Notes under the pieces: model-generated
What the model saw: the letters and a program-made list of their open reading frames with translations, nothing else
What the model was told of the DNA's origin: nothing
Databases searched by the model: none
Program-made: the position numbers and the translations under genes
Assembly: GCA_009782785.1 (NCBI GenBank)
Contig: WRIJ01000002.1
Location: 124,001 to 188,000, forward strand
Direction: 5' to 3'
Origin: Propionibacteriaceae bacterium
Lineage (GTDB): Bacteria > Actinomycetota > Actinomycetes > Propionibacteriales > Propionibacteriaceae
Length of the DNA: 64,000 bases
In this document: positions 16,579 through 39,283 of the stretch, piece after piece
Layout: every line of letters begins with the position of its first letter
Numbering within the stretch: position 1 is the first letter of the stretch

Positions 16579-16948
16579 TGGTGGAGATGGGGGGAATCGA
16601 ACCCCCGTCCTCGAAAGGCGATCTAAGCATTCTCCGGGCGCAGTATTCGTTCGTGTTTTACTCGGCTCTCATGCACTCCAATACACGTCATGAACAAGCC
16701 CAGTCGCTATGAATGTCCTGTGAAACCCCTAGGACGAGGGAGTCACAGTAAGCCTTCTAGACGAAGCCAGGCACTAAAGGGAAGGCACCCCTAGGCTGAC
16801 TCTTCGGTTGCAGATCAGGCTGCAAGAGCGAAGTTGGTGCGAACATCGTTGGCACTTATTGTTTTTCAAGGATCGTTAACGAGATAACCTTGAATCCTCG
16901 GCCCGCTTCTCTTAGAACAACCATTCCAAGTCGAAACCAGTCATCCCC
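16579..16948 (-). ncRNA. ssrA: Transfer-messenger RNA (tmRNA)
   Basis: The minus strand begins GGGGATGACTGGTTTCGACT at 16948 and ends with a tRNA-like T arm (GGGTTCGATTCCCCC) and CCA at 16579, giving 370 nt. The tag reading frame runs GCC AAC GAT GTT CGC ACC AAC TTC GCT CTT GCA GCC TGA, which encodes ANDVRTNFALAA and ends in the ALAA degron. tmRNA rescues ribosomes stalled on broken mRNA together with SmpB. The acceptor stem ends pair as expected. No smpB is in the window. Confidence 0.95.
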
Positions 16949-23128: not shown

Positions 23129-24181
23129 CTATTCATGCGAAGAGGGATTGGTCGATAAATCCTTGCCCAGGAGCTCGTAGTGGTTGCGGTGGGTGATGAG
23201 ATGAGGGGCATACTGGGCTGTGGAGGTGTGCTCGGCGATGAGTGCACCCACACAGGAGAGTTTCTTCTGCTGACATTGTTGGAGGAGGCGGGTGGCCATG
23301 ACTGGGCCTATGCCGCGTACGGCTGAACCCATATAGAGGGCCACGATCGACGAATAATTGTGTTTGCGCCACATCAGACGGGCCAGCATCACCGGAGAGA
23401 TTTTCGCCTGGGTGAGGGGGCCATAGTCGGGAAGTACGATGGAGAAACCCACCAGGGTATCCTCCTGCCACGCCACAGTGATCAGATGAGGGTCACATAT
23501 TGTGCGCAATGGTCCGAAAAGTTGGGCGAAAGCCTCGAAGGTGATGGTGTTGAACACTGGGAAAGTGGAATACAGCTCCATGACGAGGGAATAAATCTGC
23601 GGAAGTAGTTGATCCCAATCGGCGAGCCTCAATGATTCGACACGGTAACCCTGTTGTGTCATGACTGCGACGAGTTGGTCTGCGCCAGCATCCAAATCCT
23701 TGTCGGTGATCTGCGGATAGAAACTAGAGGAATATCGGTGAACAGTGGAATAACCGAAGGCAGTCCACCACGAGTGATAGCCGGGTTGGTTGTAGGGTTC
23801 GAAAGCGTACGGTACGTCGAAGTGGTCAACTTTCATGCGGTATCTCAACCAGAAACTCCCGTCAACAGGGCCGATCATCCGTTCACGCGACAAACCCCGT
23901 GCTGTGGTCTCAGCCCAGGACAAGAGTTCATGGGCAATGGTGTCATCTTCAGCTTCAAAGAAACCCAGATAAGCCACATCAGAATCAGGGTAGGTGGTGA
24001 TCGCACACCGGCCCGCCGCCTGCCCGCCACGATGAACAACAAAAGGTGTCAAGGTGAATTGGTCCGAGAGAGGATGGGCGCCTTTCAACAGTGCTTCTTC
24101 ACTCTCCCGCGAAACAACCGGCCATGGATAGAGCCGATGGGGAAGATCGAGAAACCCTTGATTATCTATCATGTGTTCCAT
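23129..24181 (-). CDS. YghO-like GNAT-fold acyltransferase
   Basis: This protein of about 350 residues has the layout of the YghO-like GNAT family: LPHRLYPWP near the N-terminus, a beta-strand core VVHRGGQAAGRCAI, then AYLGFFEAEDD and RMIGPVDGSFWLRYRMK. A second GNAT-like half follows. Bacterial ceramide synthase is, as I recall, a relative of this family, so N-acylation of a lipid amine is one option; this is inference. It is the last gene of the lipid operon. The start is uncertain: ATGs at 24211, 24181 and 24172 are in frame, all overlapping the upstream gene; GAGAAG precedes 24181. Confidence 0.75.
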   Translation of the reverse strand: MEHMIDNQGFLDLPHRLYPWPVVSRESEEALLKGAHPLSDQFTLTPFVVHRGGQAAGRCAITTYPDSDVAYLGFFEAEDDTIAHELLSWAETTARGLSRERMIGPVDGSFWLRYRMKVDHFDVPYAFEPYNQPGYHSWWTAFGYSTVHRYSSSFYPQITDKDLDAGADQLVAVMTQQGYRVESLRLADWDQLLPQIYSLVMELYSTFPVFNTITFEAFAQLFGPLRTICDPHLITVAWQEDTLVGFSIVLPDYGPLTQAKISPVMLARLMWRKHNYSSIVALYMGSAVRGIGPVMATRLLQQCQQKKLSCVGALIAEHTSTAQYAPHLITHRNHYELLGKDLSTNPSSHE

Positions 24182-25775
24182 CCATCTTCTCGATATGGCC
24201 TGTGCTTCCATCTAAGCGAACTAGGTCACCGGTGGTCAGCCACGTCGTGACGTCGGGAGCCCCAACTACACAGGGCAAACCCAGTTCGCGGGCCACAATG
24301 GCGGCATGGGAGAGCAGGGAGCCCCGCTCGGCAATGATCCCCACAGATTGGCGCATCAGAAACACCCACCCTGGGTCCGTACTGCGGGCGACAAGGATCT
24401 TCCCCGTGGCATCAATACCGTCGCGGGGGTCGGTGACGACGACAACTTCAGCTTCGACGACGCCTACTGATACTGGGATTCCTGCGACCGTGGTCACGTG
24501 CACTGGGGTTCCTTCGAAGGTAGGTGATGGCGACTGAAGATCGTCGGCGTCCACGGGTGAACCATGGGGTTGTCCCTGGTCATCCAACAGCAGTCGCGAT
24601 GGTGGATCATGTTCCTCAAAACCCTCCCATTGGTGCTGACGCGCAGCCACGATTGATGGGCAATCCTCAGTGGTGGTGAACAGTTCGTCGATGGTCAGAT
24701 AGAAAACATCCTCCACATTATCCAGGTGTCCTGCGCCCACGAGGTTCTCCCCCACAGCTCGTACGATCGCGCGTACCATGCCAAATAATTGTGCCCGAGC
24801 TAGCCGTGAGGATTCCCGGTACGCCACTGCTTGGCGCGCTTTCTTGCTGAGGCGTGATGAGCGCAAACGGTCACCAGCGCCAAGGGTGTGATCAGTTGAG
24901 GAATCAGTAGGGGTGTCGAGAACGACCTGGATGAAGCCGAGCGGGTGGGTTCGAAAAGTCTTGGTTTCTAGTTTGAGTTCCCCTGGTACGCGATCGGCGA
25001 AGGTCTGTAGGTATTGACCCATGGCTTGACGAGTGCGCTCTTGGATGACATCAGTCAACTCGGTGTTCAACCACCCGCGAGATTCCTCATCGGTGCTCAA
25101 TTTCTCCAGAATCTCACGGGTACGGTCGTCCATGGACTCAGCTATCTCACTGAGAACTCGAAGGGGTTCCACACTAGCTAACATCAGGTCTTGAACATCT
25201 CTCCTGGTTTCCTCGACCCGTGAGGTGAACCAGAAAGCTCTCAGATCGTTGATCAGCGTGACATCCCAGGTGTGGAGCACACTGTGTTGAATCTGGGAAA
25301 ACAGCTTCTCCAGATCGACGTTGGTGTGTTGGTTGAGTTCGCCGAAGGAATCATAAACCTGGTGGACTTCCCTAAATTCTCCAGCCAGTTGATCCATGAG
25401 TTTCGGTGTTTGGCCCCACGTACGGATCAAACGGAGAATCCCACGAGTTGCCGCTATCCACGAGAGTTTTGCTGAGCTGCCCACATTGACTTCGCCAATA
25501 GCTAGGCTTCGTTTCCACACTGGGATAATCCGGGAAGAAAATGGAAGAAGCTGAAGGAGTCGAAGCCAATTGTCGAGTCGATAATAGAGTCGCCCTTGGT
25601 GGGTAGCCACCATGGAATCCACCACATCCCCCACATCCTGTGATAAACCCATGCGATCAACGAGACGGCCAAACACCAGCGAGTAAACCAGCTCAGCGAA
25701 GGAGCAGGTCATCGGGGAACACACGCCGGGGTAGTTCTCCGCAATATTTGAATTGTCGAGGATACGTATGGTCAT
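24162..25775 (-). CDS. PEP-utilising/phosphohistidine-domain protein lacking the ATP-grasp domain
   Basis: The 537-residue protein resembles the middle and C-terminal parts of rifampicin phosphotransferase and PEP synthase. A long helical domain contains DNVEDVFYLTIDELF near residue 350, and the swivelling phosphohistidine domain at the end carries GSLLSHAAIVARELGLPCVVG with the phospho-accepting His. No PPDK N-terminal ATP-grasp domain precedes it, so it cannot load phosphate alone. The partner at 27249, two genes upstream in the same operon, has that domain, so the two may share phosphate. It overlaps psd by 4 bp. Confidence 0.8.
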   Translation of the reverse strand: MTIRILDNSNIAENYPGVCSPMTCSFAELVYSLVFGRLVDRMGLSQDVGDVVDSMVATHQGRLYYRLDNWLRLLQLLPFSSRIIPVWKRSLAIGEVNVGSSAKLSWIAATRGILRLIRTWGQTPKLMDQLAGEFREVHQVYDSFGELNQHTNVDLEKLFSQIQHSVLHTWDVTLINDLRAFWFTSRVEETRRDVQDLMLASVEPLRVLSEIAESMDDRTREILEKLSTDEESRGWLNTELTDVIQERTRQAMGQYLQTFADRVPGELKLETKTFRTHPLGFIQVVLDTPTDSSTDHTLGAGDRLRSSRLSKKARQAVAYRESSRLARAQLFGMVRAIVRAVGENLVGAGHLDNVEDVFYLTIDELFTTTEDCPSIVAARQHQWEGFEEHDPPSRLLLDDQGQPHGSPVDADDLQSPSPTFEGTPVHVTTVAGIPVSVGVVEAEVVVVTDPRDGIDATGKILVARSTDPGWVFLMRQSVGIIAERGSLLSHAAIVARELGLPCVVGAPDVTTWLTTGDLVRLDGSTGHIEKMDGTHDR

Positions 25776-26629
25776 CTGGCACTTCCCACAGATTCACCCA
25801 CGCGGATACGGGTCTCGATCCCCGCTTCGGAATCCGCGATGATATCGGAGTCGATGTTGGCGTTGACGAGCAGTACGATCGTGGACGCTCCCAGCCCAAA
25901 ATGGCCTTGTTCTTGGCCACGGAACGCAAGCTCAACAGGTTCCATGTGGATTCTTCCCACCAGCAAGGCACCAACAGTGACCTGGATAACCTCACCAAAG
26001 TGTTGTGTTGCCAGCCGTGTGACCACGCGATGGTTCTCAGCAAAAACGCCGCGACCATCCGACTGTGGCCCGACAGTATGGAGTTTCCCAGGGATCTCGT
26101 ACTGGTCGAGAATCTCGCAATCATCAATGAAATGGAAGCGATGATAGTCATCAATGCTGAGCCTGAAAATGACCGCCCAGGTGAACCCATCGGTTGGGAG
26201 TTCGCGACCCAACAATGTCTCCAGGGTGTAATCGAAACCTTTGATCGTGAGAGTCTGACCGATAGGAGAAACAGAGACCTTCGAATCAGCGGGAGCAACC
26301 AGGCGACGCGGGTCTAGATCAAAGTGGCGAGCATCCTCAGCTAGTCTCCTGCCAAAAAAGTCAGCGAAACTTTCGTAGTCCGTCGACTCGAAGTCTTTGG
26401 TCTTAACTGAGTGCTGTGAAATGAACCCCGGAATCCTGCTCGCAGAAGACTTCCAGGTCATCGGCCAACCCAAGAATCGGGAGAACCACCTTTGAGTCAC
26501 CAACACATTGGCGACCAGGCGCCCCAGCCCTGTGGTGTAGAGCCAGACCAAGGCGGAACCACCAACATGGTGGTCTTCACTGACTTCCCCAGTAGCCCTA
26601 TCGCGAACCACCTGGGCAGAAGTGGTCAC
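25772..26629 (-). CDS. psd: Phosphatidylserine decarboxylase, Clostridium-type
   Basis: This 285-residue proenzyme decarboxylates phosphatidylserine (or a similar serine lipid) to the ethanolamine form. The pattern SFADFFGRRLAEDARHFD, APADSKVSV and the catalytic histidine in DDYHRFHFID (near residue 165) match the form found in clostridia. GALLVGRIHMEPV and EQGHFGLGASTIVLL precede the C-terminus. The self-cleavage site reads Gly-Ala-Ser-Thr where Gly-Gly-Ser-Thr is usual, so the scissile bond would be Ala-Ser. The gene overlaps its neighbours by 4 bp on both sides and directly follows pssA. Confidence 0.9.
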   Translation of the reverse strand: MTTSAQVVRDRATGEVSEDHHVGGSALVWLYTTGLGRLVANVLVTQRWFSRFLGWPMTWKSSASRIPGFISQHSVKTKDFESTDYESFADFFGRRLAEDARHFDLDPRRLVAPADSKVSVSPIGQTLTIKGFDYTLETLLGRELPTDGFTWAVIFRLSIDDYHRFHFIDDCEILDQYEIPGKLHTVGPQSDGRGVFAENHRVVTRLATQHFGEVIQVTVGALLVGRIHMEPVELAFRGQEQGHFGLGASTIVLLVNANIDSDIIADSEAGIETRIRVGESVGSAR

Positions 26630-27252
26630 CGCAGCCCCACCCAGATGACTCCAGCGAGCATCACAACCGCGAGAACCGCGAAACCAATCAGTGATTTCTT
26701 TGTTGGTTTGGGAACCTTGACATCAACAACGAAACCAATAGTGAGTGCCACCATACCGCCCAACCAGAGCCAATCAGTTGGCCCCCCAGCAACAGCTGAG
26801 GTCAACCACAGAACCGACAGTACGAGTGCAGCCATCGTGACAGGGATTCCCCGATAGTGGGAGATGGGAGTGTCGGGATCGGCGTAGGCATTAAAGAAAG
26901 CCAATCTCGTCACACCCGCTAGTGCGTAGAGCGAAGCAACCACAACCTGGGCCACGATGGGCAGATCGAAATAAGCCAAGACAACAATGGGGAGCGCGAG
27001 AAAACTCAGCACATCAGCCAAGGAATCCAACTGCACACCGATAGCACGGGCGTGGTCACTGCGGTGAAAAAGCCGGGCAAAAGACCCATCAAACATGTCG
27101 CAGGTTCCTGCCACAATCAGACAAAGGATGGGCACTACTAAGGGTTCCCCCTTCATGCACAGAACAATACCCACCACAGCGGAAACAATCCCCAGGTAGG
27201 TGACGAGATTAGCCCGCGAGAATCCTTGAATTACTGGCACTGTATCGTTCAT
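26626..27252 (-). CDS. pssA: CDP-alcohol phosphatidyltransferase, phosphatidylserine-synthase type
   Basis: The 208-residue integral membrane protein has about six membrane segments. The CDP-alcohol transferase signature is complete: DMFDGSFAR near residue 51 and, 11 residues on, GVQLDSLADV with the three metal-binding aspartates. The VQLDSLADVLSF form and position favour serine as acceptor, and psd next door supports that. It would convert a CDP-activated lipid plus serine to a phosphatidylserine-type product. Genes on both sides overlap by 4 bp. Confidence 0.9.
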   Translation of the reverse strand: MNDTVPVIQGFSRANLVTYLGIVSAVVGIVLCMKGEPLVVPILCLIVAGTCDMFDGSFARLFHRSDHARAIGVQLDSLADVLSFLALPIVVLAYFDLPIVAQVVVASLYALAGVTRLAFFNAYADPDTPISHYRGIPVTMAALVLSVLWLTSAVAGGPTDWLWLGGMVALTIGFVVDVKVPKPTKKSLIGFAVLAVVMLAGVIWVGLR

Positions 27253-29561
27253 TGTTGTATCGTTCCTTGTTCCCCATCAATGGTGATGATCTGTCCATCG
27301 CGTACGGCATCAAGAACCCCGGTTGCGTGGACAACACAGGCAATACCATACTCGCGAGAGACAATTGCTGCATGACAAAGCAGTCCACCGTACTCGGTGA
27401 CGACAGCTGCAATAGATGAAAAACACGGTGTCCAACCGGTGTCGGTGAAGCGGGTGACAAGAATGTCACCGGGTCGGATTCGACCTAGTTCGCTGAGGTC
27501 ACTGACCACGCAGGCGCGCGCAGTGACCCGCCCTGAGCTACATCCCAAACCAGTGATCACCCCATCTGTACGTGGTGGGGTGGGTCCGAGTGTTGAGCCG
27601 ATTTCGTTGTCGGACAGATAGTTTCGATAGGCAGAAAAATAGCGAGAATTTCGATCCACCTCGTGGCGTACTTGGTCTGCGTCAATTGTTCCATCATGGA
27701 AGGCCCATAGTGTTTCCACCCTCAGGTGGAAGATATCCTCCACGCGGTCAAGGATTCCTCGGGCAACATAGAGTCGCCCCAACGCTAGGGTGTATCGGCG
27801 GATCACATCATAGAACCGTGTCGACAGGTCCCGGAATTCTTCACGCCACCACAACAAGGTACGCATTCTCTCGACTCGTTTGCGGAAAGAACGACCCTTC
27901 CTCGCAGAAGAAGCGGCTTCGATATCTGAGAGTCGGTGAAGGTATGCTTCGTGTTGGCGAGCAACCGCATGTCTGGGATCGTGGTCGTCACCCAGTTCAC
28001 TGAGTTCGCTGAGTTGGCGGCGTACTGGTTCTGGATCCTCCCAATAGTTCGGATATCCCACATCCAACTCGCGATCTGAATGATATCCGTAGGCTGTGAG
28101 GTGTTGTTGGAGGGCGTCCTCATCGACGCGGCCGTGGAGTCGATGGTGGCGCGACAACTCCCACAGACTCACCACGGGACGCAGGTGGGAAATATCCTCC
28201 AACCCACCAATGAGTTCCAGATAACCACTGAGGTCGGTGTGTTTCCAGACAGCATCCCTGAACAAGGATTGGTGAACAGTGTTCAAAAATATCTGCAGAA
28301 AGTAGGTGGATTCTACGAAAAGATAGTCGTCTCGGGTCAAGTCTTGGAAGGCTTGCGGTAAGCCCTCACCCGATTCGGTGAGCTCGTCGAGTGTGGCGAG
28401 CCGATCGGCTATCAGTTCTTTGATTTGCTGAGCGAGTTGGTGTGCGTCACGTTCGCGCTCCTTGAGCATCCGTGACTGAATGATCGCTGTGGGTAGGAGT
28501 TTGATGAGGGTACGTGGGGTGAGTTTCGTGGTACGCCCGTCACCGTCATAAGGGACCGCCACACCGTACTCTTCATCAAAATCACGCTCCACATATCCGG
28601 GGACACCCGACATGATTTCTTTGACCATCGACAGGTTCCAGTACGGTCGAGAGTAGAACATTCCCCCTAGTGGGCGTAGGTTTTTGCGAGTGACAAGCTT
28701 GGAGTCAACAACAAAGTTGCCAAGTGCGTGCTCCCAAATGTATTGATACAGGCTCCACATGTATCGCTGGCATGGACCCGCTGAGACTCCCCCATCTTTG
28801 AAGTCAGCGGTCGACCACATGTCGGTGAGCCCTGCATGCATGATGCTGGTGACCGGGCGTACCTGTAACACCCACAGTTGGCCTTCTTCGTAGGCAAACT
28901 CAAGGTCAATAGGATATCCATAATGTTGTTGGATGTGCGCCGCCACCTCGACAAGCTCATCGAAGAAACCCTCGGGTAGATCACCTATGCCCTTGTCTAG
29001 CCACCTCCGATCCAACCAGTCAAACACGATGGTGGCGGGCGTGACCTGGCCCGAGACGAGAGCATCCCCGAGACCGGGAACATATTCGATCACCAACTGG
29101 GTGTCTGCGCCGGTGAGCGGATTGACCGTGAAAGCAACACCTGCATAGTCAGCCTTCACCATGGTTTGGATGATGACCGCCATATCTGTGTTGTCTAGGC
29201 CATAACGCGAGAGGTACGCTCTAGCGGTCGGTGAGGTCGCTGAGGACAGACACTGCTCGATGGCAGAAGCAAGTCCATCCTTGGGTACGTTCAGGATCGT
29301 GTCGTACTGGCCAGCAAAAGACGCTGCACCCAAGTCTTCGTGAACCGCCGAGGACCGTACCGCGTAGGAACCCTCCGGTAACCTGTCCAGTGAAACCATC
29401 AGGTCTGGTGGGATATTGCCCGGCGAAGCAACACCGACAGGAATCACCCATCCTGCTGGTACGGTGAACCCGGCATTCATAAGAACCCCCAGATGGTGGG
29501 CTTTCCCGCCGACTTTCTCGCGGGATTCTTGGGCGTCTAAGGCGATGAGGGGAGACGTCAT
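27249..29561 (-). CDS. Rifampicin-phosphotransferase-like dikinase (ATP-grasp plus phosphohistidine domain)
   Basis: The 770-residue protein has three domains. The PPDK/PEP-synthase ATP-grasp domain (residues 1-240) retains GGKAHHLG, AVRSSAVHEDLGAASFAGQ, GVAFTVNPLTGA and LWVLQVRPVTS. A helical substrate domain (about 250-680) contains DRVEDIFHLRVE. The swivelling domain ends the protein with GGLLCHAAIVSREYGIACVV and its phospho-accepting His. Relatives transfer the beta-phosphate of ATP to an acceptor, releasing AMP and Pi. The acceptor here is unknown; a lipid or prenyl alcohol is a guess from context. Ends overlap carS-like and pssA genes by 4 bp. Confidence 0.88.
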   Translation of the reverse strand: MTSPLIALDAQESREKVGGKAHHLGVLMNAGFTVPAGWVIPVGVASPGNIPPDLMVSLDRLPEGSYAVRSSAVHEDLGAASFAGQYDTILNVPKDGLASAIEQCLSSATSPTARAYLSRYGLDNTDMAVIIQTMVKADYAGVAFTVNPLTGADTQLVIEYVPGLGDALVSGQVTPATIVFDWLDRRWLDKGIGDLPEGFFDELVEVAAHIQQHYGYPIDLEFAYEEGQLWVLQVRPVTSIMHAGLTDMWSTADFKDGGVSAGPCQRYMWSLYQYIWEHALGNFVVDSKLVTRKNLRPLGGMFYSRPYWNLSMVKEIMSGVPGYVERDFDEEYGVAVPYDGDGRTTKLTPRTLIKLLPTAIIQSRMLKERERDAHQLAQQIKELIADRLATLDELTESGEGLPQAFQDLTRDDYLFVESTYFLQIFLNTVHQSLFRDAVWKHTDLSGYLELIGGLEDISHLRPVVSLWELSRHHRLHGRVDEDALQQHLTAYGYHSDRELDVGYPNYWEDPEPVRRQLSELSELGDDHDPRHAVARQHEAYLHRLSDIEAASSARKGRSFRKRVERMRTLLWWREEFRDLSTRFYDVIRRYTLALGRLYVARGILDRVEDIFHLRVETLWAFHDGTIDADQVRHEVDRNSRYFSAYRNYLSDNEIGSTLGPTPPRTDGVITGLGCSSGRVTARACVVSDLSELGRIRPGDILVTRFTDTGWTPCFSSIAAVVTEYGGLLCHAAIVSREYGIACVVHATGVLDAVRDGQIITIDGEQGTIQQ

Positions 29562-30145
29562 AAGGGGTTCTTTCTCAAACCGACGCCATAGAGCAACAGA
29601 TTGAACACCACATGGGTGAGCCCACCAGCAATGATGTAAACCAGGGCGAAAATCAGTGTTAGTGGGGCAAAGAAACTCACCAGGATCACCATGCCGATGA
29701 TGGAGTCAATCTGGTCAACAATGATGAAAACCAGGTTCCATGGTGGTCGGGCTGGTTGGCCTGGGGTCACATCCAAGCGGCGTTTCGCAAACGAGTTGGG
29801 CAGTTCGAACAGAGCGTACGCAAGACCGATGAGGGCCCCGACCACAAGATTGAAACCCACCGTGTTGGCGTGGCGGGTGTAGAAAAGATTGAATTGTCCA
29901 AGACTGGGGAAACTGGCGCAGAGGGCTCCCCATCCGAGGCAGGCGAGCATCCCGAGGCCCACCATTCCCACCACACCCTTCCAGGTTTTGTTGTCACCGA
30001 AAATACGTTTCGATTTCCATGTTTTGTTGTGATCGAGGGGGTGGTTGAGTGATGGCGCTAGGCGGGTGGAACACCACACCATATTGAGGACACTTGCGAT
30101 GAGCCCCGGCATGAGGGTGACATACATCTGCGCAAGCCACGTCAT
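29558..30145 (-). CDS. CarS-type CTP transferase (CDP-archaeol synthase family)
   Basis: The 195-residue membrane protein has five or so membrane segments and carries the CarS/CdsA signatures: DNKTWKGVVG near residue 48 and, further on, SFAKRRLDVTPG then IIVDQIDSIIG with the metal-binding Asp residues. Archaeal CarS activates unsaturated archaetidic acid with CTP; CdsA does the same for phosphatidic acid. The family form here is closer to CarS, which is short. The start at 30145 overlaps the UbiA stop by 4 bp (ATGA). A longer in-frame extension up to 30475 only mirrors the UbiA gene and was rejected. Confidence 0.85.
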   Translation of the reverse strand: MTWLAQMYVTLMPGLIASVLNMVWCSTRLAPSLNHPLDHNKTWKSKRIFGDNKTWKGVVGMVGLGMLACLGWGALCASFPSLGQFNLFYTRHANTVGFNLVVGALIGLAYALFELPNSFAKRRLDVTPGQPARPPWNLVFIIVDQIDSIIGMVILVSFFAPLTLIFALVYIIAGGLTHVVFNLLLYGVGLRKNPL

Positions 30146-31080
30146 GAAACCCCGATCCCAGCGAGTCGGGCGATGAGGAACACCACCATGAGGCCTTGGG
30201 CGCCATAGATATATAGCGAGACAGGGGTGACCAATGCGAAACGTTTCGGGTTGTTGAGGAAAAGGATGCCGACCAGCACGAGAACACCATAGATTCCCAT
30301 GATGGCGATCGGGGTCCACCAGTAGAGCTGGAAGCCGAGAATGGAGGCCATGACCGCATCGAGGAACATGGCAACAAGGATCACGATCACAGGGGTGCGT
30401 ACACCGAAGAGTTTCGAGTAGGTGACATAGTCGGTTTCGTCCTGCGGGGCACGTACCTTGCGGGCGATCTCCCACACCAATCCTGGGAAATAAAGGGTGA
30501 ACAGGATGAGGATGTTTTGCCAGGTGAGCAGTGGAATCCCGTAGCGACTACAGGCGTACGAAATGACGTACATGTTGAGGACGAGCTGTACAGGATTGTG
30601 GGTGATCAAGGCCAGTGGCAGTGAACGCTGGATGCGATATTTTTGGAAGAACCAAAACGACATCGCGAACCCGTAGGCGACGAGTAGGGCGAAGAAAACA
30701 TGGTTGCCAACGAAGATAATGTTCGCGATGACCGTGATCGAATCAAGGATGATGAGCAACACTGCGAGGTCCTTCTTGTGGACTCGACCGGAGGGCAGAG
30801 CCCTGTCGGGAAACAAGGTGAGATCTGTGTCGTAGTCTTTGAAGTCATCGGCGATGCGCAGGGTCAACAGGAAAGCCATGATCGTGAAACCGGCAACTAC
30901 GTCACCGATCGTGATCGGCAACCACCCGTACCCCTGAGTTAACCCGACGAGAAAAAAGATCTCAAAGAACAGAAGATAACCCAGCGCAGTCCTGGGCAGG
31001 ATCGGAAACATTTCTTTGAGGTACTTATGGAGCCGGACCACCATTCGATTCGATGATGTCACAGGCTGATCAACGCCCAC
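30142..31080 (-). CDS. UbiA-superfamily prenyltransferase
   Basis: This 312-residue protein has about eight to nine membrane helices. The two Asp-rich motifs are RIADDFKDYDTD near residue 82 and, in the second half, EIARKVRAPQDETDYVTYSK, where the usual second DxxxD is partly replaced. Superfamily members move a prenyl chain to an aromatic ring, to heme, or in archaea to glycerol-phosphate ethers (DGGGP synthase). Next to a CarS-type gene the last role is attractive but unproven. The start is a GTG at 31080 with GGGAGAAGG upstream; it heads the operon. Confidence 0.85.
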   Translation of the reverse strand: MGVDQPVTSSNRMVVRLHKYLKEMFPILPRTALGYLLFFEIFFLVGLTQGYGWLPITIGDVVAGFTIMAFLLTLRIADDFKDYDTDLTLFPDRALPSGRVHKKDLAVLLIILDSITVIANIIFVGNHVFFALLVAYGFAMSFWFFQKYRIQRSLPLALITHNPVQLVLNMYVISYACSRYGIPLLTWQNILILFTLYFPGLVWEIARKVRAPQDETDYVTYSKLFGVRTPVIVILVAMFLDAVMASILGFQLYWWTPIAIMGIYGVLVLVGILFLNNPKRFALVTPVSLYIYGAQGLMVVFLIARLAGIGVS

Positions 31081-31207: not shown

Positions 31208-31453
31208 ATGGCAACAACTCTACTGTCATCGCGTGGGCAAATCGTCATCCCCGTTGATGTTCGTACTGCCCTCGGTTGGAAAGCCGGCGACAAGGTCACT
31301 GTGGAAGTTTCACAGGACAACACCGAAGTTCACCTGCGCAAGAAAGAAACCCTTGATGCCATGGCCGAGCGCCTTTCCCGCTATGTGTTATCTGGAACAC
31401 CGCCGCTGATGGATGTCCATGATTTCTATGAACACCGTGAGGCAAGAGGATGA
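31208..31453 (+). CDS. AbrB/MazE-type antitoxin
   Basis: The 81-residue protein has the swapped-hairpin DNA-binding fold: TLLSSRGQIVIPVDVRTALG and KAGDKVTVEVSQD in the first 45 residues, then a toxin-wrapping tail. A TATGAT box at 31183 and the ribosome binding site GGAGG come before the ATG. Its stop overlaps the PIN toxin start by 4 bp, which is typical for coupled VapBC-like pairs. Confidence 0.88.
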   Translation: MATTLLSSRGQIVIPVDVRTALGWKAGDKVTVEVSQDNTEVHLRKKETLDAMAERLSRYVLSGTPPLMDVHDFYEHREARG

Positions 31454-31845
31454 CGGCTTCCCTCGATACCAACGTACTGTTGCGGTTTGCACTCGGGGAT
31501 GTGCCAGAGCAGTTCACGAAGGCTTACGATCTCCTCAACCAACCTGGGGCCTCCTTTGTCGTTGTGGATGTTGCCTGGGTGGAAATGGCCTTCGCCTTGG
31601 AGAGGCACTATCACCTGGCTCGTGTTGCTATCGTCGATATCATCACTTCTCTGATGAGTATTGATGTTGTGACAACCCACGAAAAACTCATCACCGATAC
31701 ATGCACGATTTACCTGAATCATCCAAAACTCAGTTTTACCGACTGCTATTTAGGATCTGCAGCAGAGGGTGCTGGGGCAACTCCCCTCTTCACTTTCGAT
31801 GAGAAACTAGCCCACCAGCACGATGGAGCAGAACTAGTTCCCTAG
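31450..31845 (+). CDS. PIN-domain toxin (VapC-like)
   Basis: This 131-residue PIN ribonuclease has the catalytic acidic residues in SLDTNVLLR (D6), VDVAWVEMAF (E44) and SFTDCYLGSAAEGAG, with a final Asp in FTFDEKL. PIN toxins of this group cut tRNA or rRNA when freed from antitoxin. It forms an operon with the AbrB-type antitoxin at 31208. Confidence 0.9.
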   Translation: MTASLDTNVLLRFALGDVPEQFTKAYDLLNQPGASFVVVDVAWVEMAFALERHYHLARVAIVDIITSLMSIDVVTTHEKLITDTCTIYLNHPKLSFTDCYLGSAAEGAGATPLFTFDEKLAHQHDGAELVP

Positions 31846-34066: not shown

Positions 34067-37000
34067 ATGATTTTTACAAAGGAATCGGATTTTGAAGAAG
34101 CTCTCATTAGAGCGCTTCAGACTAAGGGTTGGGAAAAGGAGGTTATCAAGCACCCAACTGAACAAGACCTGTTAGACAACTGGGCCACCATTCTCTTCGA
34201 TAATAATCGAGAGCGGGATCGACTCAATGGGTTCCCACTGACCCAGACGGAAATGCAGCAAATCATCGAACAGATCACGACTCTGCGTACTCCACTGAAG
34301 CTCAACGGTTTCATCAACGGTAAAACAGTATCAATTAAGCGGGATAATCCAGATGATGTGGAGCATTTTGGTAAGGAAGTGGCTCTCAAGATCTATGACC
34401 GCCATGAAATTGCTGCAGGACAGAGTCGATACCAGATCGTTCAGCAACCCCAGTTCCCCACAGCTGGCATACAGCGCGACCGCCGTGGCGATCTGATGCT
34501 CATGATCAATGGTATGCCTGTGATCCATCTGGAATTAAAAAAGAGTGGAGTAAGTGTTAAGCAAGCTGCGAATCAAATCGAAAAATATTCTCAGGCAGGT
34601 ATCTTTACGGGTTTGTTCGCTCTCGTCCAGATTTTTGTTGCCATGGAACCCGAGGAGACTCTCTATTTCGCAAACCCAGGACCAGACGGCAATTTCAACA
34701 CTGATTTCTATTTCCACTGGGCCAATTTCGATAATGTTCCGATCAACAATTGGAATAGCATCGCCACTTCGCTTTTGTCTATCCCTATGGCTCATCAGCT
34801 CATTGGTTTTTACACTGTTCCCGATGATGCCGATGGGGTTCTCAAGGTGATGAGAAGCTACCAGTACTATGCAGCACACGCCATCTCTGATCGGGTAGCA
34901 AAACACGTTTGGGATGGGCGTCAACAACTCGGTGGGTATGTATGGCACACCACTGGTTCGGGTAAAACCATGACCAGTTTCAAGTCCGCGCAACTAATTG
35001 CAAATTCCAAAGATGCTGACAAGGTCGTTTTCCTGGTTGACCGAATTGAGCTTGGCACCCAGTCGCTCAAGGAATACCGCGGGTTTGCAGAAGACAATGA
35101 TGAGATTCAAGCCACAGAAAACACCCATGTTTTACTGAACAAATTGACTAGCTCAACACCTGCGGACACGCTCATCGTCACGTCTATACAAAAAATGAGC
35201 AATATCAGGCAGGAGGTCGGAGTAAACGAAGCCGATATTCTCAGAATTCAGAAAAAACGTGTGGTTTTCATTGTTGATGAGGCGCATCGCTCAACCTTTG
35301 GAGAAATGCTGAACGAAGTGAAAGGTGCTTTCCCAGATGCATATTTCTTTGGGTTTACTGGCACACCGATACATGAAGAAAACAAGATAAAAGGAAGCAC
35401 AACAGCAACTGTGTTTGGCGATGAACTCCACAGATATAGCATCGCCGATGGTATCCGAGACAAGAACGTGCTTGGCTTCGATCCATACAAAGTCCTAACC
35501 TATAAAGATAGAGATATCCGCTGTGCGGTGGGAATGCAGGAAGTGAAAGCGACATCGGAAGAGGAGGCGATTCGGGATCCTGATAAACGAGACAGGTTCT
35601 ACTATTTCATGAATACAGCTCCTATGGTTCGTGACCGCAACCAGCAAGGTAAATACACCAAGGGCGTTGAAGACTATCTGCCAAGGAGTCAGTACAGGAG
35701 TCATCTTCATCAGGAGCAAGTAGTGGAGGACATTCTCACCAATTGGATGACACGGTCGCGTGGGGGAAAGTTCCATGCCCTATTTGCCACAAGTAGCATC
35801 CGTGAAGCCATTGAATACTATCGTCTCCTCAAAGAAGAGGAGCCAACCCTCAAAGCCACCGCCCTATTTGATTCCAGTGATGAAGATGCGGAAGACTTCA
35901 ACCCTGATCGCCGCGAAAATGCTCAATTTAAGACAGACGGGCTTATTGAGATTATTGAAGACTATAACCAGCTCTTTGGTCAGAGTTTTCAGGTCAGTTC
36001 CCACGCCCAGTTTAAGAAGGATGTTGCCTCACGTCTCGCTCATAAAGATCAATACAAGTGGATAGACTCCGAGCCAGAGAAACAATTGGAACTCCTGATT
36101 GTGGTCGATCAGATGCTCACTGGTTTTGATTCAAAATGGATCAACACCCTGTATATAGACAAGGTGCTGCAAAACCAGAACATCATCCAAGCCTTTTCGC
36201 GCACCAATCGCATTTTCGGTCACGAGAAACCTTTTGGGACCGTTCGCTACTATCGTAAACCTCACACGATGGAACGTTACGTTGAAGAAGCAGTGAAGTT
36301 GTATTCTGGTGATAAACCATATGGGATATATGTAAACAGACTTGAAGACAACCTAGTTGAAATCAATTCGATATTTAGTGACATCCAACAGGTTTTCAAA
36401 GACGCGGGTATTCCAGACTTAACCAGCATCCCTGATAACGAAGCAGCGTGTGGAAGATTTGCTTCATTATTTAGGAAACTGGGAGAGACCATTGAGGCCG
36501 CGAAGGTTCAAGGGTTCACCTGGAAACAGAAGGTTTACGACATCACTCAGGAGGGTGCTTCTGAAACAACAACGGTTGAGGTTGAGATCGATGAGAATAC
36601 CTATCTCGTGCTCGCCTTGCGCTATAAAGAACTCTTTAGCCCCGATTCAGGAAACACAGGTGGGGGTAGTGAGGACCCACCTTACGATATTGAGGGTTAT
36701 CTCACGGAAATTGATACGGGGAAAATTGACTCGCGGTATATGGACGCCAATTTCGACAAGTACTATAAGCTACTGAACCTTAACCCTCCTTCTGATCAGG
36801 AGTCGATTAATGTAGCTCAGGCTGCTTTGCTTCGTTCCTTTGCCACGCTTTCTCAAGAGCAACAAAAATATGCAGGCATCTTTCTCAGAGACATCGAAAG
36901 AGGAGATATCACAGTGGAGCGGGGGATGGGTTTCAGCGACTATATATCCCAATACCAAGCAAAAACTGAATCGGGCAGAATCCACGACTTGGCGGTAGCG

Positions 37001-37252
37001 CTGGGGTGTAGCGAGGATCTCTTGCGTAATATGATCGGGCAACAGGTAACTGACACCGATCTCAATAGCCACGGGCGTTTCGATGAGCTTAAGGCCTCCG
37101 TTGATCGCGAGAAAGCCAAGGAGTACTTCGACACAAGGGAAGGGAAATCACTGTCACTTCTTGAGGTAAACATTCAGACCGGAAAATTGCTCCGCGAGTT
37201 CGTGCTTGCTGGTGGCTTCGACATCAGCGAGGGTTCCAGCAGCGACCAATAG
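34067..37252 (+). CDS. hsdR: Type I restriction enzyme R subunit
   Basis: The 1061-residue protein has the PD-(D/E)xK nuclease region at VIHLELKKSGVSVKQAANQIEKY (near residue 155), a SF2 translocase with Walker A TTGSGKT near 297, the DEAH box in VDEAHRSTFG near 404, and GFTGTPI. The helicase C-terminal domain contains VDQMLTGFDSKWINTLYIDK and QAFSRTNRIFG. All motifs are intact. GTAC is much rarer here than in the core genes, suggesting import. It needs HsdM and a full HsdS, which are not visible in the window. Confidence 0.95.
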   Translation: MIFTKESDFEEALIRALQTKGWEKEVIKHPTEQDLLDNWATILFDNNRERDRLNGFPLTQTEMQQIIEQITTLRTPLKLNGFINGKTVSIKRDNPDDVEHFGKEVALKIYDRHEIAAGQSRYQIVQQPQFPTAGIQRDRRGDLMLMINGMPVIHLELKKSGVSVKQAANQIEKYSQAGIFTGLFALVQIFVAMEPEETLYFANPGPDGNFNTDFYFHWANFDNVPINNWNSIATSLLSIPMAHQLIGFYTVPDDADGVLKVMRSYQYYAAHAISDRVAKHVWDGRQQLGGYVWHTTGSGKTMTSFKSAQLIANSKDADKVVFLVDRIELGTQSLKEYRGFAEDNDEIQATENTHVLLNKLTSSTPADTLIVTSIQKMSNIRQEVGVNEADILRIQKKRVVFIVDEAHRSTFGEMLNEVKGAFPDAYFFGFTGTPIHEENKIKGSTTATVFGDELHRYSIADGIRDKNVLGFDPYKVLTYKDRDIRCAVGMQEVKATSEEEAIRDPDKRDRFYYFMNTAPMVRDRNQQGKYTKGVEDYLPRSQYRSHLHQEQVVEDILTNWMTRSRGGKFHALFATSSIREAIEYYRLLKEEEPTLKATALFDSSDEDAEDFNPDRRENAQFKTDGLIEIIEDYNQLFGQSFQVSSHAQFKKDVASRLAHKDQYKWIDSEPEKQLELLIVVDQMLTGFDSKWINTLYIDKVLQNQNIIQAFSRTNRIFGHEKPFGTVRYYRKPHTMERYVEEAVKLYSGDKPYGIYVNRLEDNLVEINSIFSDIQQVFKDAGIPDLTSIPDNEAACGRFASLFRKLGETIEAAKVQGFTWKQKVYDITQEGASETTTVEVEIDENTYLVLALRYKELFSPDSGNTGGGSEDPPYDIEGYLTEIDTGKIDSRYMDANFDKYYKLLNLNPPSDQESINVAQAALLRSFATLSQEQQKYAGIFLRDIERGDITVERGMGFSDYISQYQAKTESGRIHDLAVALGCSEDLLRNMIGQQVTDTDLNSHGRFDELKASVDREKAKEYFDTREGKSLSLLEVNIQTGKLLREFVLAGGFDISEGSSSDQ

Positions 37253-37293
37253 GTCCCTGACTATCGATTTTACTCAGGTAGTCCAGGCTAATG

Positions 37294-37787
37294 CTTGGGA
37301 ACAGCGGAAGGCAGCAGACATTTTCCAAGCTACGGCAGAAAAGGGTTTCCCAGAATTACCCGTTCTTTCGGCAACACAGGACCGGGGAATGATTTTGCGG
37401 GATGAGACAGGGATTAACATTGCGCACGATAAGAAAAATGAAGCTACCTACAAGAGAGTTCAACCAGGGCAGTTCGTAATCCATCTTCGCTCTTTTCAGG
37501 GTGGCTTCGCCCATTCAGCAGTTGAGGGAATTACATCACCGGCGTATACAGTACTTAGTTTCATCGAGCAGGACCGTGATCACGATTGGTTCTGGAAACT
37601 CACTTTTAGTTCTCCAAACTTCATCACTAGGCTCGAAACCGTAACATATGGAATTCGCGATGGACGTAGCATCAGCTACGAAGATTTCACACAAATGCGA
37701 TTTACCTCTCCAAACCATGGAGAGCAGAAACGCATGGGAGAGTATTTCAAGTCTCTTGACCACCTCATCACCCTTCATCAGCGTGAG
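37294..37787 (+). repeat. 494-bp direct repeat, copy 2
   Basis: This is the identical partner of 33507-34000. It begins at CTTGGGAACAGCGGAAG, also the outer inverted repeat, and ends inside the inner inverted repeat. Confidence 0.9.
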
Positions 37788-37793
37788 TCTCCT
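37755..37793 (+). repeat. Inner inverted repeat, left arm
   Basis: CTTGACCACCTCATCACCC begins a 39-nt arm that encodes LDHLITLHQRESP. Its inverted partner at 38754-38792 has one mismatch. The pair encloses the recombinase gene. Confidence 0.88.
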
Positions 37794-37802
37794 GGTTTTG
37801 GG

Positions 37803-38729
37803 TCAGCTGAGACTCGATAGTGACCTCATCACGAGGTCAATGTCTTGGTTCTCAAGCTCTTGGATGATATGGACATAGGTTTTCTGGGTGGTGGTCATAC
37901 TTGAATGCCCGAGCCTCCGTGCGACACTGGCTATAGAAACTCCAGCAAAGAGAAGCAACGAAGCATGAGTATGGCGCAACCCATGAATGGTGATAGTCGG
38001 GATCTCTGCGCGAACACAATGCCGACGGAGAATGTCATTGACAGTCGAGTTGAAGACAGGGCCGTTAATGAAGAGTGGCTGATCGTCTGGCAGACATTTC
38101 ACCAACTCGGAGAATTGAATGACTGTTTGCCAGTCAATCTGAATTTTCCTCACCGATGACCGATTCTTCGTGGGCAGGAAACCACCGGAACCTTTGTAGT
38201 CCCAGGTTTTACTAATTGACAGCGATTGATGGGAAAAGTCGAAATCTAGTGGTGTCAGAGCGAGAGCCTCAGAGAACCTCATTCCTGTCTTAGCAACAAG
38301 AAGGATAAACCAATCCCAACTAACTACTGGTGTTAGCACCATGCCTGAGAGCAGAGTGTGGAGCTCAAACTGGTTGAGGAACTTGGGTTTCTTAGGCCGT
38401 GGAGTCATGCCCTTAATAATGGCTTTGCGGGTAGGGTCTCGGTCTACCAGCCCCTCATCCACGGCATCCAAAATGGCGCCTTTTAGCTGATGGTGGAAAT
38501 CCATCGTTGTCTGTCTTTCATGACATTCTGCATATGCATTCAGCAACTGTTGGTAAGCAGTCCGAGACATGTCACAAACTTTCAGATGCGGAACGAGTTT
38601 CTCAATCCATGCTTGTGTCATACGGTATTTCTGAAGAGTGACATTTCTGATTGCTCCTTCCTTATAAACTCGAATCCATCGGCCATAGTAATCACTGAAT
38701 AGCTCTGATTCTTTGGGGTGGTGAAACAT
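37803..38729 (-). CDS. Tyrosine recombinase, likely hsdS invertase
   Basis: This 308-residue tyrosine recombinase shows the catalytic residues: Arg in TGMRFSEALALTP, His-x-x-Arg in IHGLRHTHASLL, and LGHSSMTTTQKTYVH with the nucleophilic Tyr. The frame is open upstream through an hsdS cassette, but AGGAGGA lies 6 nt before the ATG at 38729, so that is the start. The gene lies between inverted repeats that match hsdS boundaries, as in loci where such recombinases shuffle specificity. Confidence 0.88.
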   Translation of the reverse strand: MFHHPKESELFSDYYGRWIRVYKEGAIRNVTLQKYRMTQAWIEKLVPHLKVCDMSRTAYQQLLNAYAECHERQTTMDFHHQLKGAILDAVDEGLVDRDPTRKAIIKGMTPRPKKPKFLNQFELHTLLSGMVLTPVVSWDWFILLVAKTGMRFSEALALTPLDFDFSHQSLSISKTWDYKGSGGFLPTKNRSSVRKIQIDWQTVIQFSELVKCLPDDQPLFINGPVFNSTVNDILRRHCVRAEIPTITIHGLRHTHASLLLFAGVSIASVARRLGHSSMTTTQKTYVHIIQELENQDIDLVMRSLSSLS

Positions 38730-38753
38730 GGTGTTCCTCCTATTCATGGTTGG

Positions 38754-38792
38754 AGGAGACTCACGCTGATGAAGGGTGATGAGGTGATCAAG
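38754..38792 (-). repeat. Inner inverted repeat, right arm
   Basis: This is the reverse complement of 37755-37793 apart from one base, and it encodes LDHLITLHQRESP on the minus strand. Confidence 0.88.
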
Positions 38793-39283
38793 GTGAGCGA
38801 TAGCCGAGGCGACAGTCACTTGCTCAGCAAATAATGGAAACTGAAAAGAGATTTGCGACACTTGTTGAAAGTTCAGGCCCTCGCGTGCCCCACCTGCCTG
38901 ACTGGAATCAATCAGTTTCTGCCCTCGACTGGAAGCGAGGTTCTGCTGAATGAAATCTGCAGAGTATCCTTCAACTGGCCTCACAATGCAGACATGCTGA
39001 TTCACATTTGCGGCGCATAACTGCTTGTAGACGGCACTTCTACCGATAGATGCGCCGGTGATGTTCAAGAGAACATCGTTTTTGAGTACCCGAGAGTTCT
39101 TCATCTCATCGTCTGTATCTGAATCAATGAAAACAACATCCCCCAAGTCCACTCGGTCCGAGTTGACATTCTGAGAGCGAATCAGCGGCACACCACTGGT
39201 TTTATATGCACTTTCGCCGCCACGCGGTGTCTTGCCACTTCCGATTTTCGACGTAACATCCCCGAGCTTCCGCTGTTCCCAAG
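38757..39283 (-). pseudogene. hsdS cassette with a second recognition domain, inverted
   Basis: The minus strand reads PWEQRKLGDVTSKIGSGKTP, then GVPLIRSQNVNSDRVDLGD and a recognition domain unlike the other copy, ending in LDHLITLHQRES. It has no start codon at the WEQRK boundary and no HsdS C-terminus, since the frame continues into the recombinase gene. Swapping it with the 37294 cassette by inversion at the 17-nt and 39-nt repeats would change the DNA target. Confidence 0.8.
39267..39283 (-). repeat. Outer inverted repeat, right arm
   Basis: CTTGGGAACAGCGGAAG on the minus strand is identical to 37294-37310 and 33507-33523 on the plus strand. It encodes the WEQRK boundary of HsdS. Confidence 0.85.

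What the first reader, a model, noticed from the sequence alone, without database searches (positions are those of the whole stretch)
23129..31080. Seven-gene operon for an unusual phospholipid, with archaeal-like CTP transferase and phosphohistidine proteins
UbiA prenyltransferase, CarS-type CTP transferase, rifampicin-phosphotransferase-like dikinase, PssA, Psd, a second phosphohistidine protein and a YghO-like GNAT protein form one minus-strand operon, with 4-bp overlaps at all but the last junction. Seen directly: order, overlaps, motifs. Known of families: CarS, PssA and Psd are successive steps from a lipid phosphate to an ethanolamine head group, and UbiA proteins can attach prenyl chains to glycerol phosphate in archaea. 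Inference: the dikinase supplies phosphate to a lipid or prenyl alcohol, the CarS-type enzyme activates it, PssA and Psd build the head group, and the GNAT protein may N-acylate the amine. I know of no described pathway with this set. No glycerol-1-phosphate dehydrogenase or GGGP synthase gene is present, so true archaeal lipids are not implied.
Basis: partly seen in the sequence, partly recalled or inferred. Interest (0 to 1): 0.88.

Follow-up and report, generated by a model that had tools for sequence, protein, structure and literature searches.

The report
Seven-gene operon for an unusual phospholipid
A seven-gene cluster found in uncultured bacteria of different phyla looks like an undescribed pathway for a non-standard phospholipid, using an archaeal-like activating enzyme and two phosphate-relay proteins; what it really makes is not yet known.

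Summary
In detail: UbiA, CarS, dikinase 1 (DIK), PSS, PSD, a second phosphohistidine protein (PEPu) and a GNAT form one minus-strand operon. A CarS-based scan gave 15 loci in other genomes; 11 hold all seven genes, in MAGs titled Actinobacteria, Clostridia or Saccharibacteria. Protein distances correlate. The CTP transferase matches CarS, not CdsA; a CdsA-family gene lies elsewhere in the host, and the operon's PSD is the host's only one. No GGGP synthase passes the cut-off in 16 genomes searched.

New: UbiA, a PEPu-lineage dikinase and a GNAT recur without DIK or PSD nearby: on a Roseinatronobacter plasmid with a BtaA-like enzyme, and in two genomes of the phylum of L022 with PSS and a CTP transferase. 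All three carry a protein resembling SEC59/phytol kinase (motif recalled). DIK and PEPu are separate lineages; the window's PEPu lacks an ATP-grasp.

Best reading, inferred: DIK and PEPu activate an isoprenoid alcohol, UbiA attaches it to a glycerolipid, CarS-PSS-PSD build an ethanolamine head group, GNAT acylates. Substrates and product are unknown.

The parts
30142..31044 (-). UbiA-family prenyltransferase (PRK13592-like); first Asp motif ADDFKDYDTD, second motif E-x2-RK-x2-AP-x2-E in place of an Asp-rich motif
29558..30145 (-). CarS-like CTP transferase (195 aa)
   Evidence: PF01864 51.5 bits; PDB 5guf, E 2.5e-8
27249..29561 (-). DIK, full dikinase: ATP-grasp, middle (substrate) domain, swivel domain; phosphocarrier His730 at 27372-27374
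26626..27252 (-). PSS, CDP-alcohol phosphatidyltransferase, best NCBIfam matches are archaetidylserine and phosphatidylserine synthases (below cut-off)
25772..26629 (-). PSD, phosphatidylserine decarboxylase family; pyruvoyl Ser249 at 25883-25885 in GAST (GGST in the 12 other rows)
24162..25775 (-). PEPu, second phosphohistidine protein: middle domain and swivel domain only, no ATP-grasp; His490 at 24306-24308
23129..24211 (-). GNAT-like acyltransferase (start at 24211 or, more likely, 24172)
   Evidence: (below cut-off)

Best explanation
The operon encodes a self-contained pathway for an aminophospholipid with a non-standard hydrophobic core. It consists of a core module (UbiA, PEPu, GNAT, and in some lineages an AMP-binding, acyl-CoA-ligase-like enzyme), a lipid-alcohol kinase (DIK here, a SEC59/phytol-kinase-like protein elsewhere) and a swappable head-group module (CarS, PSS, PSD here). 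Preferred mechanism, all steps inferred: (1) DIK moves a phosphate of ATP through His730 onto an isoprenoid alcohol; (2) PEPu, which here has no ATP-grasp and may be charged by DIK or by phosphotransfer between substrates, adds the second phosphate; (3) UbiA transfers the chain to the free hydroxyl of a glycerolipid such as lysophosphatidic acid, so GGGP synthase is not needed; (4) CarS makes the CDP-lipid; (5) PSS exchanges CMP for serine; (6) PSD yields the ethanolamine head group; (7) the GNAT acylates it, probably on the amine. Shown here: the genes, their conserved catalytic residues, their co-occurrence, the modular variants and the lack of a GGGP synthase match over cut-off. Not shown: any substrate or product.
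For: All seven genes recur in 11 of 15 fetched loci. All 21 gene-pair distance correlations are r 0.73-0.955, each with 0 of 2000 permutations as high (the 11 loci, window included, that are in all seven alignments). Catalytic residues are invariant: DIK His730 (14 rows), PEPu His490 (13 rows), PSS DG-x2-AR...D-x3-D (12 rows), PSD Ser249 (13 rows), CarS KRR and DQ-x-DS (15 rows). CarS-like, not CdsA-like, by profile. No GGGPS over cut-off in 16 of 16 genomes; the control had it over cut-off in 5 of 14. UbiA, a PEPu-lineage dikinase and a GNAT recur with a BtaA-like enzyme and in two genomes of G463's phylum with PSS and a CTP transferase. In these three stretches a SEC59-like protein is present and no DIK-type gene was seen. 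A kinase, a second kinase and a UbiA enzyme is the logic of plant phytol salvage (VTE5, VTE6, VTE2; recalled). Split dikinases with the ATP-grasp on another protein are known, and HpeH alone moves phosphate between substrates (PMC12167813, abstract read).
Against: No substrate or product is known. The SEC59 assignment rests on a recalled motif plus P0010-P0019 similarity (E 1e-6, one comparison); no Pfam or NCBIfam model matched P0010, no Pfam model matched P0019, and the third protein matches P0019 weakly (E 0.001), its only Pfam match being a sub-threshold DUF2929. The CTP transferases of the two outside genomes are not clean CarS: G875's scores PF01148 36.9 and PF01864 34.3, G928's only PF01148 at 24.9. 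PEPu in the window and in G875 has no ATP-grasp, and no DIK was seen near it in G875, so its phosphate source is unclear. The GNAT of G875 is not a clear homologue of the operon GNAT (hhalign probability 1.3); that of G928 was not compared. DIK neighbours CarS in every locus with both, which fits the first rival equally well. UbiA's acceptor is a guess.
Confidence: 0.4

Rival explanations
1. DIK, not PEPu, makes the substrate of CarS: UbiA, PEPu and GNAT build a prenylated or acylated glycerol-like alcohol, DIK phosphorylates its free hydroxyl like a diacylglycerol kinase, and CarS, PSS and PSD follow.
For: DIK directly follows CarS in all 15 loci that hold both, counting the window. In the other UbiA-dikinase stretches looked at, only one dikinase gene was seen and it was not closest to DIK (two of these stretches, L053 and L054, begin inside or just before that gene, so what lies upstream was not seen). 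The DIK and PEPu lineages are separate. In a betaine-type operon BtaA needs a free hydroxyl, which this core would supply.
Against: The betaine-type operon still carries a SEC59-like protein although its head group needs no lipid phosphate; PEPu then needs another role.
Confidence: 0.3
2. The core is not isoprenoid: UbiA transfers another allylic or fatty chain, as may be the case in the actinobacterial clusters that share the UbiA-dikinase pair, and the product is a signalling or secreted lipid rather than a bulk membrane lipid.
For: The UbiA-like and PEPu-lineage pair also sits in actinobacterial clusters with AMP-binding, ACP, NAD_binding_4 reductase, NDK-like or AfsA genes. The operon is rare and patchy in the two phyla sampled for it.
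Against: No CarS or PSD relative was seen in those clusters, so their chemistry need not carry over; the CarS-PSS-PSD set points to a phospholipid.
Confidence: 0.15
3. An ordinary phosphatidylethanolamine operon: CarS is a divergent CDP-diacylglycerol synthase, PSS and PSD make normal PE, and the dikinases, UbiA and GNAT are unrelated passengers.
For: The operon's PSD is the only PSD match in the genome, so the operon could supply PE to a host that otherwise could not make it. CarS-like proteins of some outside genomes also match PF01148.
Against: The other four genes are co-conserved with correlated divergence, and the core occurs with a different head-group enzyme. A CdsA-family gene is present elsewhere.
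Confidence: 0.1

Closest known systems
Archaeal glycerophospholipid pathway (GGGPS, DGGGPS, CarS, archaetidylserine synthase and decarboxylase)
   Same: UbiA-family enzyme, CarS-family CTP transferase, PSS with archaetidylserine synthase as best NCBIfam match, then a serine decarboxylase.
   Different: No GGGPS over cut-off, no PF13685 match over cut-off in the host, UbiA lacks the third Asp-rich motif described for DGGGPS (motif from passages of PMC9385802), CarS, PSS, PSD and UbiA all below NCBIfam cut-offs, and two phosphohistidine proteins added.
Archaeal-type lipid genes of FCB-group bacteria (PMC7852524, passages seen)
   Same: Bacteria carrying archaeal-lipid-like genes.
   Different: There, in Ca. 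Cloacimonetes, CarS was one of two pathway genes not detected; here CarS is present and GGGPS was not found.
Rifampin phosphotransferase-type dikinases (PMC4844700, abstract start in a search listing) and two-component HpeHI (PMC12167813, abstract)
   Same: ATP-grasp, middle domain and swivel His in DIK; middle and swivel domains only in PEPu, as described for HpeH.
   Different: DIK and PEPu form own groups in the trees; lipid-gene context; no separate ATP-grasp gene in the operon.
Bacterial betaine lipid synthesis, BtaA/BtaB (PMC10685587, passages)
   Same: The related operon in Roseinatronobacter has a DUF3419 protein (188.9 bits); a DUF3419-annotated algal gene was identified as a betaine lipid synthase in that paper.
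   Different: No BtaB-like gene is listed beside it in the stretch seen; a GNAT is there. The window's operon uses CarS-PSS-PSD.
Plant phytol salvage (VTE5, VTE6, VTE2; recalled)
   Same: Alcohol kinase, second kinase and UbiA-family transferase in series is the proposed logic.
   Different: The dikinases are other enzymes (recalled); the acceptor would be a glycerolipid, not homogentisate.

Membership tests
Archaeal-type ether lipid pathway | GGGP synthase (PF01884) | tested here: not met
   0 of 16 genomes over the cut-off (host and the 15 genomes of L010-L024; MAG completeness is known for the host only, 96.8%); 2 of 16, one the host, had weak sub-threshold matches; control over cut-off in 5 of 14
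Archaeal-type ether lipid pathway | Glycerol-1-phosphate dehydrogenase (PF13685) | tested here: inconclusive
   Host: one sub-threshold match (25.1 bits, cut-off 28). 10 of 16 genomes have matches over the cut-off, but so do 13 of 14 controls, so the model does not single out G1PDH
DGGGP synthase (UbiA superfamily) | First Asp motif D-x3-D | tested here: met
   D72, D73, D76 and D80 invariant in 13 of 13 rows
DGGGP synthase (UbiA superfamily) | Third Asp-rich motif | tested here: not met
   Invariant E198-x2-R201-K202-x2-A205-P206-x2-E209 instead (motif definition from passages of PMC9385802)
CarS (CDP-archaeol synthase) | Pfam CarS-like model | tested here: met
   51.5 bits, cut-off 22; PDB 5guf E 2.5e-8; below the NCBIfam PRK04032 equivalog cut-off, 67.9 against 148
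CarS (CDP-archaeol synthase) | Activity on prenylated glycerol phosphate rather than phosphatidic acid | not testable with these tools
   needs an enzyme assay
CdsA | PF01148 match | tested here: not met
   no match at E 0.1; the genome's only PF01148 match is elsewhere. A tree with archaeal CarS was not built
RPH-type dikinase (DIK) | ATP-grasp plus swivel His | tested here: met
   PPDK_N and PEP-utilizers over cut-off; His730 invariant in 14 of 14 rows
RPH-type dikinase (PEPu) | ATP-grasp domain | tested here: not met
   absent in 5 of 13 rows, the window among them; the other 8 have the N-terminal part, PPDK_N confirmed by Pfam in the 3 scanned
Two-component dikinase (HpeHI type) | Separate ATP-grasp partner protein | tested here: inconclusive
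   No separate ATP-grasp gene in the operon; DIK's own ATP-grasp could serve in trans, which was not tested
Phosphatidylserine decarboxylase | Family match and pyruvoyl Ser | tested here: met
   135.4 bits, cut-off 22; Ser249 invariant in 13 of 13 rows, GAST in the window and GGST in the other 12
CDP-alcohol phosphatidyltransferase (PSS) | DG-x2-AR...G-x3-D-x3-D motif | tested here: met
   invariant in 12 of 12 rows; serine specificity not testable
YghO/bacterial ceramide synthase-like GNAT | Sequence relation to YghO or bCerS | not tested

The most novel reading that the evidence does not exclude
A previously undescribed class of bacterial membrane lipid, with an isoprenoid chain activated by a pair of phosphohistidine enzymes and joined to a glycerolipid, made by a transferable modular pathway whose head-group part can be exchanged (ethanolamine through CarS-PSS-PSD, or a homoserine/betaine type through a BtaA-like enzyme), and shared between Actinobacteria, Clostridia, Saccharibacteria and their kin and an alphaproteobacterial plasmid. 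It would be a way for bacteria to make archaeal-like lipids without GGGP synthase.
Probability: 0.3. Interest if true: 0.9.

Novelty: new variant of a known kind. Interest (0 to 1): 0.74.

Why it matters
If the reading holds, some bacteria make a lipid that crosses the archaeal/bacterial lipid divide by a route without GGGP synthase, using phosphohistidine enzymes in place of ordinary lipid kinases. It would also give a function to proteins that NCBIfam models now call phosphoenolpyruvate synthase (PRK06241.2-3 for PEPu, PRK06241.2-2 as best match of the Roseinatronobacter dikinase) and prenyltransferase (PRK13592), and it points to a cultured test organism for the shared core, Roseinatronobacter sp. 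S2.

Tried and rejected
Considered and set aside: true archaeal lipids (no GGGPS over cut-off); an ordinary PE operon with passengers (co-conservation); recent duplication of the two dikinases (separate lineages); a betaine-type variant in the window itself (no DUF3419, SEC59-like or AMP-binding relative among window ORFs of 80 aa or more; the rest of the host genome was not searched for these).

Led nowhere: PDB searches with UbiA, GNAT and the SEC59-like protein gave no useful relative; viral contigs gave no relative of UbiA; plasmids gave no match to the clostridial UbiA; a phage search with PEPu gave 13 records, none covering 80% of the query. Paper searches returned nothing. No description of this operon was seen in searches; that library holds open-licence papers only. 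A tree of CarS with archaeal CarS and CdsA was not built for want of archaeal sequences. The L024 test for transfer was not decisive: it is about equally like both groups.

Rows that do not fit, and limits. The genome-contig scan used two short CarS peptide patterns, so co-conservation is conditional on a CarS of this type. L013 lacks PSS in 20.6 kb; L015 and L018 end at contig ends after CarS-DIK and CarS-DIK-PSS; L023 has only part of CarS on an 8.2-kb contig. G177 has a CarS-like gene with no other operon relative in 19.9 kb, and G037 a weak CarS match not followed up. Of 33 non-query CarS hits in G463's phylum, seven contexts were fetched (two of them under 9 kb); one, L068, holds UbiA and PEPu, and two show a weak PSS match. 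G928 was added later through UbiA; the fourth UbiA hit, G1095, shows no other operon relative. Of six non-host actinobacterial UbiA hits, five contexts were fetched; four have a PEPu-lineage dikinase, L056 does not. Genes there were called by a simple script of mine. In tree 133 I labelled the S. durmitorensis dikinase UbiA-linked although no UbiA is annotated in its 18-kb stretch. The tree program warned of long branches and uneven composition in both trees; the placing of the two dikinases from G463's phylum rests on long branches (forks 86/51 and 84/56). Two long-branched dikinases (Rhodococcus sp. ZPP, Methylocystis) were dropped before tree 133.
Full report
OBSERVATION. The seven genes are on the minus strand of the window at 23129-31044, with 4-bp overlaps at five junctions and a longer overlap at the last. 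UbiA has no Pfam match but matches NCBIfam PRK13592 prenyltransferase at 310 bits, below its cut-off of 443.

RECURRENCE. A scan of the genome-contig collection with a two-row CarS alignment, using two short peptide patterns, gave 15 loci. Eleven of the 15 hold all seven genes; L012 is counted although its GNAT is cut by the contig end. L013 lacks PSS, L015 and L018 end at contig ends, and L023 has only part of CarS. All 15 titles say MAG; they name Micrococcales, Propionibacteriaceae, Actinomycetales, Clostridia, Clostridiales, Ruminococcus, Oscillospiraceae and Candidatus Saccharibacteria. I did not verify the binning. Some isolate names look like termite-gut MAGs (recalled); two titles name goat samples. 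There are two main orders: UbiA-CarS-DIK-PSS-PSD-PEPu-GNAT in the window and four actinobacterial loci, and CarS-DIK-(PSS-PSD)-UbiA-PEPu-GNAT in the others that are complete, with PSS-PSD moved behind an AMP-binding gene in L014 and L016. Five loci carry an AMP-binding (acyl-CoA-ligase-like) gene behind GNAT (Pfam run on three). For the 11 loci present in all seven alignments, window included, all 21 pairs of distance matrices correlate (r 0.73-0.955, 0 of 2000 permutations as high). This shows co-inheritance; it does not by itself separate transfer from descent. In samples the operon is rare: CarS relatives in 2 of 396 Actinomycetota, host included (the second, G177, without other operon relatives nearby), in 1 of 398 genomes of the phylum of G458, that being G458 itself, and in 2 of 19 same-genus genomes, host included. 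The PRK13592 model found 1 of 299 in the phylum of G458, again G458.

NOT CdsA, NOT THE ARCHAEAL PATHWAY. The operon CarS matches PF01864 and not PF01148. Its profile's only PDB match with a meaningful E-value is CDP-archaeol synthase 5guf. The host's only PF01148 match is on another contig. The operon's PSD is the only PSD match in the genome, which has five CDP-alcohol phosphatidyltransferase matches, the operon's included. No GGGP synthase passes the cut-off in any of 16 genomes, against 5 of 14 controls; two sub-threshold matches, one in the host, were seen. The G1PDH test was inconclusive outside the host. In Ca. Cloacimonetes of the FCB group CarS was reported as not detected (PMC7852524, passages).

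MODULARITY. A tblastn of plasmids led to a plasmid of Roseinatronobacter sp. S2 with UbiA, a dikinase, a DUF3419 protein, two hypothetical proteins and an AMP-binding protein. The dikinase aligns with PEPu over its whole length (314 bits) and with DIK in the ATP and swivel domains (104 bits). One hypothetical protein, P0011, is a relative of the operon GNAT (hhalign probability 98.6), and its UbiA is a relative of the operon UbiA (98.0). A DUF3419-annotated gene was identified as a betaine lipid synthase in PMC10685587 (passages). The other hypothetical protein, P0010, looks like an integral membrane protein and carries what I recall as the SEC59/phytol kinase motif (RKLVH; D-x2-A-x-L-x-G); no Pfam or NCBIfam model matched it. 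In a sample of the phylum of G463 (the genome of L022, titled Saccharibacteria), 34 of 221 genomes, G463 included, had CarS-like matches. Of seven contexts fetched one, G875, holds UbiA, a PEPu without ATP-grasp, PSS, a GNAT, P0019 (a relative of P0010, E 1e-6) and a CTP transferase that matches PF01148 (36.9 bits) as well as PF01864 (34.3). A UbiA search there matched 4 of 235: G463, G875, G928 and, weakly, G1095, which shows no other operon relative. G928 has PSS, a weakly similar SEC59-like protein, UbiA, a full dikinase, a GNAT, and a CTP transferase that Pfam gives as PF01148 only. The GNAT of G875 is not a clear homologue of the operon GNAT. UbiA relatives occur in 7 of 346 Actinomycetota, host included; of five contexts fetched, four hold a PEPu-lineage dikinase, and the five include AMP-binding, ACP, reductase, NDK-like or AfsA genes in various mixtures. 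S. clavuligerus has a UbiA-like gene next to such a dikinase.

DIKINASE TREES. DIK (14 rows) and PEPu (13 rows) are separate groups, each 100/100. PEPu and seven other dikinases (Roseinatronobacter, two Streptomyces plasmids, L053, L054, L055, L057) form one side of a 100/99 branch; DIK lies on the other with RPH, PpsA and four more. With the two rows from G463's phylum added, two long rows dropped and only the shared domains used, the UbiA-linked rows stay together, but the fork at their base has 86/51 and the new rows are long. So the two dikinases are not recent duplicates, and the PEPu lineage goes with UbiA.

MECHANISM. Two readings remain. In the preferred one, DIK (or a SEC59-like kinase) and PEPu phosphorylate an isoprenoid alcohol in two steps, UbiA joins it to a glycerolipid, and CarS, PSS and PSD make the ethanolamine head group. 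For it: a kinase-like partner accompanies UbiA and PEPu even where the head-group enzyme is BtaA-like and needs no lipid phosphate, and plant phytol salvage has the same logic (recalled). In the rival, DIK phosphorylates the finished lipid alcohol for CarS: DIK follows CarS in all 15 loci that hold both, window included. PEPu without an ATP-grasp (window, L010, L011, L012, L021 and G875) has a precedent in HpeH, which works with a separate ATP-grasp protein and alone can move phosphate between substrates (PMC12167813, abstract). N-acylation by the GNAT suits both head groups, since each would have a primary amine; this is inference.

KNOWN NAMES. The clostridial UbiA and PEPu of L017 fall just short of the NCBIfam cut-offs for PRK13592 (441.6 against 443) and PRK06241.2-3 (845 against 850), so those models were probably built on relatives of this very gene pair (inference); the label phosphoenolpyruvate synthase is then doubtful. 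No paper on the operon was found in ten searches of an open-licence library.

VERDICT. The chemistry of each step is inferred and the product unknown.

Noticed in passing
window 34067-39191: Type I restriction R subunit (34067-37252) followed by a reverse-strand ORF matching both a phage integrase and a type I specificity domain (37803-39191), in a stretch of lower GC (0.46-0.49); may be an invertible specificity locus.
   Followed up: no
window 48934-51393: 819-aa protein with a lysylphosphatidylglycerol synthase membrane domain, another lipid-related gene in the window.
   Followed up: no
window 31450-31845 and 39902-40875: PIN-domain ORF on the opposite strand just upstream of the operon, and an HTH plus PIN_3 pair further on: toxin-antitoxin-like genes.
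   Followed up: no
window 16579-16948: tmRNA gene with tag ANDVRTNFALAA.
   Followed up: no
window 25883-25885 (PSD Ser249): PSD has GAST where the 12 other rows have GGST at the self-cleavage site.
   Followed up: partly
L053, L054, L055, L056, L057, L042, L037: Actinobacterial clusters combining a UbiA-like gene and/or a PEPu-lineage dikinase with, in various mixtures, AfsA, AMP-binding/nucleotidyltransferase, ACP, NAD_binding_4 reductase, NDK-like, nitroreductase or isoprenylcysteine methyltransferase genes.
   Followed up: partly
phylum of G463 (L061-L074): CarS-like CTP transferases in 34 of 221 genomes, query included; in six of the seven contexts looked at no UbiA or PEPu relative was nearby.
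   Followed up: partly
L028 (G177): A CarS-like gene in a single-contig actinobacterial genome without other operon relatives in 19.9 kb.
   Followed up: no
L010 17732-18766: A second GNAT-like reading frame (39.8 bits) behind the operon GNAT, perhaps a remnant duplicate.
   Followed up: no
G000: The host assembly is given as 6.48% contaminated; the operon lies on a 201-kb contig.
   Followed up: no
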